64,000 nt of DNA from Thermococcus sp. 18S1 (GTDB taxonomy: Archaea; Methanobacteriota_B; Thermococci; Thermococcales; Thermococcaceae). This document shows positions 1,439 to 3,745 of this stretch, one piece after another. Location: contig NZ_SNUU01000001.1 in the NCBI RefSeq assembly GCF_012027645.1, positions 372,001-436,000 of the forward strand, given 5' to 3'. The number at the start of each line of letters is the position of its first letter. Position 1 is the stretch's first letter. A program made the translations under genes and the position numbers. The notes under the pieces were generated by a model that was given only the letters and a program-made list of their open reading frames with translations, was not told where the DNA came from and did not search any database.

Positions 1439-1516
1439 GGGCCCGTGGTCTAGCCTGGTTATGACGCCGCCCTCACACGGCGGAGGTCCGGGGTTCGAAC
1501 CCCCGCGGGCCCACCA
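1439..1516 (+). tRNA. tRNA-Val (CAC)
   Basis: The cloverleaf is complete. The acceptor stem GGGCCCG/CGGGCCC (1439-1445 with 1506-1512) has discriminator A1513. The anticodon stem CCGCC/GGCGG encloses the loop CUCACAC, giving anticodon CAC. The T arm contains GGTTCGAAC. The CCA (1514-1516) is encoded in the genome. No intron is present. Four nucleotides after the CCA a 23-bp palindrome begins (see repeat element A). Confidence 0.97.
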
Positions 1517-1814
1517 TAACAAACTTTTGCAGAGCAAAAGTTTGATCAAAAGGTCGTGATTCCTTTTGAGAGGCTAGATTTTTAGTGGGTTTTTCAGTGG
1601 TCGGATTGTACTTTGGATTCATTGTCAAAAGAGCGTTCTTTAACGGGTTCGACTTCAACTCGCGCTCCAGGGAGCGCTAAAAACTCGAACCCATTTTAGA
1701 TGCGTAGCTCAAAAGAATCTCAGTTAGAACTGCCAATTCAAGTGAAAACCTTCCTAAACAGCAATCCACAAAAGAATCACAAACTTTAATGAAACTTTGC
1801 CTGCGCAAAGTTTC
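1517..1814 (+). repeat. tRNA-flanking repeat element, copy A
   Basis: This is about 300 bp of non-coding, comparatively AT-rich DNA starting directly after the CCA of tRNA-Val. It begins with a hairpin (arms AAACTTTTGC 1521-1530 and GCAAAAGTTT 1534-1543, loop AGA). A central structure follows: GGGTTCGA 1645-1652 pairs with TCGAACCC 1685-1692 around the inner stem GCGCTCC/GGAGCGC at 1662-1677. It ends with a second hairpin related to the first (GAAACTTTGC 1791-1800, GCAAAGTTTC 1805-1814). A diverged inverted copy lies at 2068-2375. The hairpins could act as 3'-end processing or termination signals, or as ends of a small mobile element; the sequence does not decide. Confidence 0.75.
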
Positions 1815-2067
1815 AGCGCTGGCGGAAAAATGGCGTGCAATTCTAAAAACGCTTGTTGATCTGATAGTGTTTCACTCCCAACAATGTCAAATGACAAGGC
1901 TTGATATTAAACCCTCATTCACCTGCAGATTTCAGAATTCATGCTTGATTTTCCCAAAGCTGGCCTGGTTGGCAAAGTTCTGGGGGTGTGGGGGCGTTAG
2001 CCCCCGGAGTTTTAGAGAAGAACGGGGTTGTGGGGCGAAGCCCCACTCCGGGGGTTTGAGAGTACAG
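1815..2067. other. Gene-free centre between the two repeat elements, with nested GC hairpins
   Basis: No convincing gene is seen here; the short open frames lack family resemblance and normal codon use. The left part is AT-rich. The right part holds two strong hairpins: GGGGGC/GCCCCC with loop GTTA (1990-2005) and GTGGGGC/GCCCCAC with loop GAA (2030-2046). An outer pairing of CCCCCGGAG (2001-2009) with CTCCGGGGG (2046-2054) competes with the first hairpin and would enclose the second. Confidence 0.6.
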
Positions 2068-2375
2068 GAAACTTTTCTTGCGAAAAGTTTCATCAAAGTT
2101 CGTGATTCCTTCGTGAACTGCTATTTGGAAGGGGTTCTCACTTAAATTGGCAGTTGATTTGGATTCATTCCGCGAAGGCAACTTTCAATAGGTTCGACTT
2201 TTTTAGCGCTCCAGAGGAGCGCAGGTTGAAGTTGAACCCTCACGAGAAAAAGCCATGGAGCTAATCCAAGTTTCAAAAACAGACTTTAAACCCAAAACCC
2301 ATTCTCAGGGAATCAATGTTGAAAAAGAATCACCCACTTTTGATCAAACTTTTGCTCTGCAAAAGTTTGTATTAC
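2068..2375 (-). repeat. tRNA-flanking repeat element, copy B (inverted)
   Basis: Read on the minus strand this copy starts behind the CCA of tRNA-Arg and has the same order of parts as copy A. First comes a hairpin AAACTTTTGC-AGA-GCAAAAGTTT (2346-2368), which with its flanks is identical to copy A over about 33 nt. The central GCGCTCC/GGAGCGC stem lies inside a larger imperfect stem (about 2189-2240). The shared words CTGCCAATT and AGTGA follow, and a terminal hairpin with arms GAAACTTTTC/GAAAAGTTTC (2068-2091) closes the element. Similarity outside the hairpins is patchy but collinear, so both copies descend from one element. Confidence 0.75.
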
Positions 2376-2453
2376 TGGCGGGCCGGGCGGGATTTGAACC
2401 CGCGACCTTCGGCTCCGGAGGCCGACGCTCTATCCATGCTAAGCCACCGGCCC
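2376..2453 (-). tRNA. tRNA-Arg (CCG)
   Basis: On the minus strand the acceptor stem GGGCCGG/CCGGCCC (2453-2447 with 2386-2380) has discriminator G (2379) and an encoded CCA (2378-2376). The anticodon stem UCGGC/GCCGA encloses CUCCGGA, giving anticodon CCG, which reads CGG. The T-arm sequence is GGTTCAAATC. A TATA-like TTTTTAAAT lies upstream near 2480-2490 on the minus strand. The gene is convergent with tRNA-Val across the repeat region. Confidence 0.96.
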
Positions 2454-2512: not shown

Positions 2513-2538
2513 TGTACACATTAATACCCAAGTGCACA
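2513..2538. promoter_or_regulatory. Candidate operator upstream of the BlaI-like gene
   Basis: TGTACAC (2513-2519) and GTGCACA (2532-2538) form an inverted repeat (6 of 7 positions) with a 12-nt spacer. It sits just upstream of a TATA-like CTTTTTAG (about 2541-2549). BlaI/MecI-type repressors bind TACA-rich dyads, so autoregulation is plausible; this is inference from position and family. Confidence 0.4.
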
Positions 2539-2591
2539 AAAACTTTTTAGCCCCGACACCCTATCATACATCAGGGAAGGATGGTGGTAAC

Positions 2592-2957
2592 ATGGAGCCG
2601 CACGAGTTCAAGCTTACCGAGGAGGGAATGAAGGCAGTTCTCCCGCCTCTCGAGGCGGAGATAATGGAGCACATGTGGAAGGTCAAGGTGGCAACGGCCG
2701 GCCAGGTCTACGAGTACATGAAGGAGAAGCACCCCGACATAAGGCGTTCTACCATAAGCATACTCATGAACCGCCTCTGCGAGAGAGGGCTGCTCAAGAG
2801 GAGCGTCGAGAAGGGAAGGGGTGGAATGAGGTACGTCTACACCATAACCGCCACCAGAGAGGAGTTTGAAGAAAAGGTCGTCCAGAGCATACTGGATGCC
2901 CTTATGACGAACTTCAAGGAGGCGACCTACGCTTACCTGTCCAAGATTAAGAAGTGA
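2592..2957 (+). CDS. BlaI/MecI/CopY-family transcriptional regulator
   Basis: The 121-residue protein has a winged helix-turn-helix at about residues 15-90 (LEAEIMEHMWK, RSTISILMNRLCERGLLKR, then a wing with the basic GRGGMRY turn). A C-terminal helix is suited to dimerisation, as in BlaI/MecI. The ATG at 2592 was chosen over an upstream GTG at 2532 because the GGTGGT ribosome-binding site precedes it and the family starts here. Its stop overlaps the start of an M48 membrane protease. In bacteria, BlaI repressors pair with membrane metalloproteases (BlaR1) that inactivate them; a similar circuit here is inference. Confidence 0.85.
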   Translation: MEPHEFKLTEEGMKAVLPPLEAEIMEHMWKVKVATAGQVYEYMKEKHPDIRRSTISILMNRLCERGLLKRSVEKGRGGMRYVYTITATREEFEEKVVQSILDALMTNFKEATYAYLSKIKK

Positions 2958-3745
2958 TGACGATGCTGTTCATCATAATGGCCCTTGAAGTCCTTCTGGC
3001 AGTGATAGCACTGGCTGAGCTGGGCCTCGAAATATCGCTGGTGGCCTTCGGGACCGTGCTGGCGCTCTACGTGTGGGTCTCAACCCACGACATCAAGGGT
3101 GAGTACGTCCCACTCCAGCGGAGCGAGATGCCATGGCTCTACGACGGCATCGCAGAGATGGCCAAGAAGGCGGGCCTGCCGATGCCAAGGGTATACATAC
3201 TGGACGAGTATATCCCCAACGCGTACTCATTCAAGAACACGATAGTGCTCTCCCTCGGCCTGTTCGAAGTCCTTGACCAGGAGGAGATACTGGCGGTGGC
3301 CGCACACGAGCTGGGACACATAAAGAACGGCGACACCAAGACCTTCCCAGTTCTTGCCTACGGGAGGTATCTCATGGTGATGTTCACCGCGGTCCTGATG
3401 CTCCTGACCAGAAGCCTAGTTATCAGCGCCGCCTCACTGACGCTCCTGGGCCTCTATGAGGTGACCCGCGCGAACTTCCATAAGGAGAGGGAGTTCCAGG
3501 CGGACGAGACCGCCCTGAGGCTCCTCGACACACCGATGAACCTCAAACGCGCCTTGGAGGAGCTGAAGTACTACGAGGACCTCCGCGTCGGCATCAAGTC
3601 CAGCGTGCTCCCAAGCATCGAGCCTTCAATCGAGAGGAAGCAGAAAGTTCAAATAATCGAAACCCACCCAAGCTACGATGAGAGGATATTCCGGATCATC
3701 ATCGAGATAGACGGAAACAACATGTTCAACAAGCGCATGCAGTGA
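2957..3745 (+). CDS. HtpX-like M48 family membrane metallopeptidase
   Basis: This 262-residue zinc protease has two N-terminal membrane segments (about residues 1-40), the HELGH zinc motif at 117-121, a further hydrophobic pair at about 135-170, and the glutamate of the EFQAD motif at 179-183 as likely third ligand. M48 enzymes of this type cleave membrane or damaged proteins with the active site facing the cytosol. The ATG at 2957 overlaps the stop of the BlaI-like gene (TGATG), which indicates translational coupling. HtpX itself is the nearest family; it is shorter at the C-terminus than bacterial HtpX. Confidence 0.85.
   Translation: MTMLFIIMALEVLLAVIALAELGLEISLVAFGTVLALYVWVSTHDIKGEYVPLQRSEMPWLYDGIAEMAKKAGLPMPRVYILDEYIPNAYSFKNTIVLSLGLFEVLDQEEILAVAAHELGHIKNGDTKTFPVLAYGRYLMVMFTAVLMLLTRSLVISAASLTLLGLYEVTRANFHKEREFQADETALRLLDTPMNLKRALEELKYYEDLRVGIKSSVLPSIEPSIERKQKVQIIETHPSYDERIFRIIIEIDGNNMFNKRMQ

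What the first reader, a model, noticed from the sequence alone, without database searches (positions are those of the whole stretch)
1517..2375. Paired inverted ~300-bp elements, each fused to the 3' end of a tRNA gene
Seen: tRNA-Val (CAC) and tRNA-Arg (CCG) converge. Each CCA is followed within about 4-7 nt by the same ~300-bp non-coding element: a start hairpin (arms AAACTTTTGC / GCAAAAGTTT, identical over about 33 nt between copies), a central GCGCTCC/GGAGCGC stem, and an end hairpin (GAAACTTT... / ...AAAGTTTC). The copies are diverged but collinear, so the structure seems to be retained. The short open frames inside show no family resemblance. Inference: either a small mobile element that inserts behind tRNAs, or a structured 3' trailer acting in tRNA maturation or termination. 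I know of no named element like it.
Basis: partly seen in the sequence, partly recalled or inferred. Interest (0 to 1): 0.65.

Follow-up and report, generated by a model that had tools for sequence, protein, structure and literature searches.

The report
Palindromic repeats stacked behind archaeal tRNAs
In the heat-loving archaeon Thermococcus and its relatives, a 300-letter palindromic DNA repeat with no gene in it keeps landing right behind the last letter of tRNA genes, pushing older copies away; it is a previously undescribed kind of mobile-looking element at the very places where these chromosomes are known to rearrange.

Summary
Copy A (1520-1815, +) follows tRNA-Val by 3 nt; copy B (2068-2369, -) follows tRNA-Arg by 6 nt. 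In three genomes, 37 of 97 high-scoring ends start 3-9 nt after a tRNA CCA, on the tRNA strand (about 0.01 expected). The family occurs in 55 of 58 Thermococcus genomes sampled and in four sister genera; plasmids, phages and Rfam gave nothing. Several apparent exceptions proved to follow intron tRNAs, tRNA 3' fragments or a C/D sRNA. Comparison of related genomes shows polar stacking: a newer element lies between CCA and an older one whose outer hairpin half is missing; A sits on a truncated 'type 2' element and B on a truncated 'type 3'. Paired boxes covary strongly, yet G.T and A.C mismatches are equally common, so the palindrome looks maintained as DNA, not RNA; it is not a terminator. Best reading: a non-autonomous palindromic DNA element family aimed at small-RNA gene 3' ends. 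The enzyme is unknown; Y1/RAYT is absent from most carriers. It adds inverted repeats where Thermococcales chromosomes are reported to invert.

The parts
1439..1516 (+). tRNA-Val (CAC) with encoded CCA; landing site of copy A
   Evidence: ARAGORN; Rfam tRNA 62.9 bits
1520..1815 (+). Element copy A (type 1), imperfect palindrome of about 296 bp, 3 nt after CCA
   Evidence: orthologue at the same tRNA 97% identical in G001
1520..1544 (+). A: tRNA-proximal terminal hairpin (11 bp, 3-nt loop)
   Evidence: I13
1556..1562 (+). A: proximal inner box GTGATTC, inverted partner of 1774-1780
   Evidence: (I6)
1662..1677 (+). A: central hairpin GCGCTCC-AG-GGAGCGC
1774..1780 (+). A: distal inner box GAATCAC, inverted partner of 1556-1562
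   Evidence: (I6)
1791..1814 (+). A: distal terminal hairpin
   Evidence: I15
1815..1979 (+). Truncated older 'type 2' module behind A; begins with only the 3' half of its hairpin (AGCGCTGGCGG...GTGCAATTCTAAA)
   Evidence: 89% over 65 nt to the type 2 element directly behind tRNA-Pro in G013 and 85% over 33 nt to the one directly behind tRNA-Val in G013; the limit near 1979 is approximate
1976..2067 (-). Truncated older 'type 3' module behind B (GC-rich stems)
   Evidence: 98% (89/91) to the module directly behind tRNA-Cys in the same genome, lacking its first 36 nt
2068..2369 (-). Element copy B (type 1), 6 nt after the tRNA-Arg CCA
   Evidence: 91% to the element at the same tRNA in G013
2068..2091 (-). 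B: distal terminal hairpin
   Evidence: I17
2206..2222 (-). B: central hairpin GCGCTCC-AGA-GGAGCGC
2345..2369 (-). B: tRNA-proximal terminal hairpin
   Evidence: I14
2376..2453 (-). tRNA-Arg (CCG) with encoded CCA; landing site of copy B
   Evidence: ARAGORN; Rfam tRNA 67.8 bits

Best explanation
A and B belong to a family of non-coding, non-autonomous, roughly 300-bp palindromic (foldback, MITE-like) DNA elements of Thermococcaceae. They arrive in one preferred orientation at the 3' end of small stable RNA genes, overwhelmingly tRNAs, joining 3-9 nt after CCA. Shown by comparison: position, preferred orientation, symmetric anatomy with coupled inner boxes, presence/absence at orthologous tRNAs, and polar stacking in which the element next to CCA displaces an older one whose outer hairpin half is lost. 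Inferred: an unidentified trans-acting enzyme recognises the two matched ends (hairpin plus box) and the tRNA 3' region; joining takes place at the tip of the older terminal hairpin; selection tolerates the site because the tRNA and its promoter stay intact. As a by-product the copies provide inverted repeats between convergent tRNAs that could serve as breakpoints for chromosomal inversions.
For: Ends: 37 of 97 strong ends in three genomes start within 12 nt of a CCA on the tRNA strand (chance about 0.00013 per end) and 70 of 97 lie within 1 kb downstream (chance 0.022). Several 'exceptions' turned out to follow an intron-containing tRNA (L039, L293, L294), tRNA-Trp (L288), tRNA 3' fragments (L287, L295) or a C/D sRNA (L042, L289). 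Dispersed: 55 of 58 genus genomes and four sister genera, none in a fifth. Turnover: at orthologous tRNAs the 5' flank is conserved in all 108 comparisons while the module at CCA changes class. Stacking: tRNA-Ile in G001 carries a new element in front of the orthologue of the G000 element, which keeps only TGCGTGAAGTTTG of its hairpin; similar at Val(gac), Cys, Leu(gag), and behind A and B. Matched ends: the same 7-mer box on both arms in 28 of 32 non-redundant elements, with five box types; 13 of 19 box pairs have two-sided changes, score 0.422 vs 0.181 shuffled and at most 0.09 when slid. Orientation: the AAGCTTT-type hairpin is distal in 24 copies, proximal in 0; core motif 25 vs 8. DNA level: G.T about equal to A.C.
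Against: No autonomous partner or transposase was identified; Y1/RAYT is absent from the own genome and from 18 of the 21 others tested. No clean empty site with target duplication was found: replacements remove part of the older module rather than duplicate a target. Some orthologous tRNAs differ by a synteny break rather than a simple insertion. The core-orientation signal is imperfect (8 of 33 classifiable copies inverted). Covariation would also be expected from a structured RNA.
Confidence: 0.66

Rival explanations
1. The elements do not transpose; they are copied between tRNA loci by homologous recombination, gene conversion or tRNA-targeted inversion, which swaps the 3' flanks of tRNA genes.
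For: Near-identical copies sit behind tRNA-Leu(gag) and tRNA-Leu(caa) in G001, tRNAs whose 3' ends are identical, and related copies behind Ile/Val(tac) (3'-end identity 0.96). Hybrid modules exist (type 2 hairpin with type 1 body). Some tRNA 3' flanks are entirely replaced. Convergent partners of tRNA-Val differ between species, seven kinds seen.
Against: Across loci, element similarity is not consistently correlated with tRNA 3'-end similarity (Mantel rho 0.21, 0.03, -0.03, -0.03 in four genomes). Copies also sit behind a C/D sRNA, which shares no sequence with tRNAs. Distal boundaries fall at the distal hairpin, which crossing-over would not predict.
Confidence: 0.22
2. A structured RNA: the tRNA transcript reads into the element, whose rod-shaped fold acts in tRNA 3' maturation, stability or termination, or is itself a processed ncRNA.
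For: Nearly every copy folds better than shuffled sequence (mean z -6.2 for 32 copies); paired boxes covary.
Against: G.T and A.C mismatches are about equally frequent (43/37 and 16/16), whereas RNA tolerates G.U. The proximal hairpin is never followed by a T-run (0 of 50). Most tRNAs lack it and it turns over between close species. An arm pairs only slightly better with its own partner arm than with others (34.1 vs 28.4, p 0.012). No Rfam match.
Confidence: 0.1
3. REP/REPIN-type sequences moved by a RAYT (Y1 transposase).
For: Dispersed palindromic hairpins, inverted pairs, non-autonomous.
Against: No Y1_Tnp gene in the own genome or in 18 of 21 other genus genomes tested, most of which carry many ends; REPs are not tied to tRNA 3' ends.
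Confidence: 0.03
4. Palindromes are kept symmetric by mutation (template switching in quasi-palindromes) rather than by any function.
For: Explains two-sided changes without RNA wobble bias.
Against: Does not explain placement at CCA, preferred orientation, stacking, or why boxes are matched while the spacers between them are much less so.
Confidence: 0.08

Closest known systems
MITEs / foldback elements (non-autonomous inverted-repeat transposable elements)
   Same: Short, non-coding, multi-copy, inverted ends, whole element nearly palindromic, dispersed, variable between species
   Different: Lands at one defined place (3-9 nt behind tRNA CCA) in a preferred orientation and stacks; each end carries its own hairpin; no partner transposase and no target duplication found
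REP / REPIN with RAYT
   Same: Hairpin-bearing repeats in inverted pairs, non-autonomous
   Different: No Y1_Tnp gene in most carriers; no GTAG foot 5' of the hairpin; tRNA-linked
tRNA-integrating archaeal plasmids and viruses (pT26-2 family, TKV, pTN3; PMC6972569, PMC5495485)
   Same: Use tRNA genes as chromosomal sites
   Different: They recombine within the tRNA and duplicate its 3' part as att sites; these elements start after CCA, carry no tRNA piece at the distal end and no integrase
Tn7-like elements and tRNA-targeting eukaryotic retrotransposons (own knowledge)
   Same: Directed, orientated, safe-harbour insertion next to a gene end
   Different: No encoded proteins, only 300 bp, polar stacking with loss of the older outer hairpin half

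Membership tests
MITE | Short non-coding element with terminal inverted repeats in several copies | tested here: met
MITE | Target-site duplication on insertion | tested here: inconclusive
   Junctions at Ile, Val(gac), Cys and Leu(gag) show loss of part of the older module, no duplication; no clean empty site was available
MITE | Ends shared with an autonomous transposon or transposase in the genome | tested here: inconclusive
   All end-to-end distances seen were short (about 170-310 bp); no longer copy with a gene noticed; not searched exhaustively
REP/REPIN-RAYT | Y1 (RAYT) transposase in the genome | tested here: not met
   PF01797 in 3 of 22 genomes, absent from the own genome
tRNA-integrated mobile element (att-type) | Duplicated tRNA 3' segment at the distal end | tested here: not met
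   Distal junctions read show none
Intrinsic terminator / structured trailer | Hairpin followed by a T-run | tested here: not met
   0 of 50 proximal hairpins
Structured RNA family | Compensatory pairing with tolerance of G.U over A.C | tested here: not met
   Covariation present but G.T 43 vs A.C 37 and 16 vs 16
Rfam families | Covariance-model match | tested here: not met
   No match at 1517-2375 apart from the two flanking tRNAs

The most novel reading that the evidence does not exclude
A mobile DNA element that is guided to the mature 3' ends of small stable RNAs in general (tRNAs, intron-bearing tRNAs, a C/D sRNA), adding new copies at the RNA end in a polar stack, and whose inverted copies between convergent tRNAs help cause the rapid chromosome shuffling of Thermococcales.
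Probability: 0.3. Interest if true: 0.88.

Novelty: new variant of a known kind. Interest (0 to 1): 0.72.

Why it matters
Thermococcales chromosomes rearrange very fast although insertion sequences are rare, and inversion endpoints were traced to tRNA pairs in opposite orientation; some of those pairs (Leu/Thr) are too unlike to be recombined by the proposed pTN3 integrase (PMC5495485). A dispersed family of inverted repeats sitting exactly behind those tRNAs is a direct, testable alternative or complement. It would also be a rare prokaryotic case of a very small element tied to one precise position behind any tRNA, with an enzyme still to be found. Genome annotation leaves these stretches as empty intergenic DNA.

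Tried and rejected
RAYT/Y1 mobilisation: rejected. RNA terminator or trailer: rejected by T-run and wobble tests. Rfam family: none. Plasmid, phage or viral carrier: no match. Copying by tRNA homology as the only route: no consistent correlation. Coding capacity: no Pfam match. A first alignment with automatic strand flipping turned about half of the copies round; the orientation was then fixed by the tRNA. Literature searches aimed at such repeats found no description; absence from this open-access library is not proof of absence.

Full report
OBSERVATION. The window lies in a 2.0-Mb Thermococcus genome (G000). tRNA-Val(CAC) (1439-1516, +) and tRNA-Arg(CCG) (2376-2453, -) converge. Copy A occupies 1520-1815 (+), copy B 2068-2369 (-); they begin 3 and 6 nt after CCA.

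FAMILY AND PLACEMENT. BLASTN finds partial or full relatives all over the own genome and in 22 of 24 other genus genomes, none in the 16 genomes of other families in that sample. A sequence-only model of the end (R1) finds ends in 55 of 58 genus genomes (often 20-50 each), fewer in four sister genera, none in a fifth (g8). In G000, G001 and G021, 37 of 97 strong ends start within 12 nt (in fact 3-9) of a tRNA CCA on the same strand, against 0.00013 expected per end, and 70 of 97 lie within 1 kb downstream of a tRNA. Several of the rest are not real exceptions: L039, L293 and L294 follow an intron-containing tRNA that ARAGORN missed; L288 follows tRNA-Trp with its C/D intron; L287 and L295 follow 3' fragments of tRNAs; L042 and L289 follow the same C/D sRNA (weak sR44 match, clear C and D boxes) in two genomes. 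Some copies (L034, L041, L290, L291, L292) have no recognised small RNA in front. In four genomes, 50 of 173 tRNA 3' flanks start with a type 1 element and 23 more with related modules (cloverleaf-hairpin form, type 2, type 3).

TURNOVER AND STACKING. In 108 orthologous tRNA comparisons among G000, G001 and G013 the 5' flank is always conserved, while the module at CCA changes class freely. At tRNA-Ile, the element touching the tRNA in G000 is found in G001 about 290 nt further out, behind a newer element, and has lost the 5' half of its outer hairpin (remaining TGCGTGAAGTTTG). The same arrangement is seen at Val(gac) and Cys in G013 and Leu(gag) in G001. In the window, A is followed by a type 2 module that starts with only the 3' half of its hairpin; type 2 touches tRNA-Val directly in G013. 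B is followed by a type 3 module lacking its first 36 nt; type 3 touches tRNA-Arg directly in G001 and tRNA-Cys in G000. So both copies in the window look like later arrivals that displaced older ones. The direction of change is inferred from truncation, not observed.

DNA OR RNA. The copies fold well (mean z -6.2 for 32 copies). Across 20 distinct rows, 13 of 19 pairs in three box helices show changes on both sides; score 0.422 against 0.181 for shuffles and at most 0.09 for slid partners. In 28 of 32 non-redundant elements the inner 7-mer is identical on both arms although five versions exist. That alone would suit an RNA. However, on the tRNA strand isolated mismatches within paired arms are G.T 43, A.C 37, or 16 and 16 under a stricter rule. 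An RNA transcribed with the tRNA should favour G.U over A.C; a duplex-DNA palindrome should not. The arms as a whole are only slightly better matched within an element than between elements (34.1 vs 28.4, p 0.012). The proximal hairpin has no T-run behind it in any of 50 copies. I therefore favour matched DNA ends. Template-switch correction of palindromes could add to the symmetry.

ORIENTATION. The AAGCTTT-type hairpin occurs only at the distal end (24 vs 0) and the asymmetric core motif is on the proximal side in 25 of 33 classifiable copies, so arrival is directional, with some exceptions.

MECHANISM. Shown: place, preferred orientation, precise distal boundary, polar stacking, matched ends. 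Inferred: an unknown enzyme acting in trans on the two ends, with the tRNA 3' region as guide and the older hairpin tip as joining point. Y1/RAYT enzymes are absent from the own genome and most carriers. Copying between tRNAs by homology alone is not generally supported (no consistent Mantel correlation), though the near-identical Leu/Leu pair in G001 may be such a case. Insertion at mature 3' ends of tRNAs and a C/D sRNA raises the possibility that RNA 3' ends or their R-loops guide the process; this is speculation.

REARRANGEMENT. Upstream of tRNA-Val the dphB gene is constant across the genus, but the convergent tRNA downstream is one of seven kinds (Arg(ccg), Ala(cgc), Gly(tcc), Leu(tag), Pro(tgg), Leu(cag), Arg(tcg)). 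Cossu et al. (PMC5495485) traced inversions to tRNA pairs in opposite orientation and noted that the Leu/Thr pair is not recombined by the pTN3 integrase. The elements described here lie exactly in such intervals. Whether they are cause or bystander was not tested; loss of downstream synteny was somewhat more common with an element at either tRNA (16 of 65) than without (5 of 43), which is only suggestive.

KNOWN OR NEW. Closest in behaviour are MITEs or foldback elements; membership is partly met (short, inverted ends, copies) and partly open (no target duplication, no partner found). It is not REP/RAYT, not an att-type integrant, not an Rfam family, not a terminator. I found no published description in the searchable library.

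Noticed in passing
window 1976-2067 and own-genome tRNA-Cys, tRNA-Arg(tcg) flanks (L033, L032): A second, GC-rich repeat module (type 3: ACGAAAGACAAGGGGGCTCCGCCCCC...) also starts directly behind tRNA CCA ends, 98% identical between places.
   Followed up: partly
L210, L223 (G001 tRNA-Leu(caa), Leu(gag)); L049 (G000 tRNA-Leu(caa)): Some terminal hairpins are expanded into a cloverleaf-like form: closing stem CAAACT/AGTTTG (type 1) or CAGC/GCTG (type 2) with three inner hairpins.
   Followed up: partly
L042:2984-3043 and L289:1198-1257: An unannotated C/D box sRNA (weak sR44 match, clear C/D boxes) with repeat elements starting right behind its D box in two genomes, of different element types.
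   Followed up: partly
L287 (about 1467-1505, - strand) and L295:1140-1173: Lone 3' fragments of tRNAs followed by an element, probably attachment-site remnants of integrated mobile elements.
   Followed up: no
tRNA-Val next to dphB, loci L078-L098 and L158-L187: The convergent tRNA downstream of tRNA-Val is one of seven kinds in different species, pointing to repeated breakpoints between tRNA 3' ends.
   Followed up: partly
window 2532-2957: Gene behind tRNA-Arg encodes a penicillinase-repressor (BlaI/MecI-type) winged-helix protein (Pfam), followed at 2954-3745 by an ORF with the HELGH motif typical of M48-type metalloproteases.
   Followed up: no
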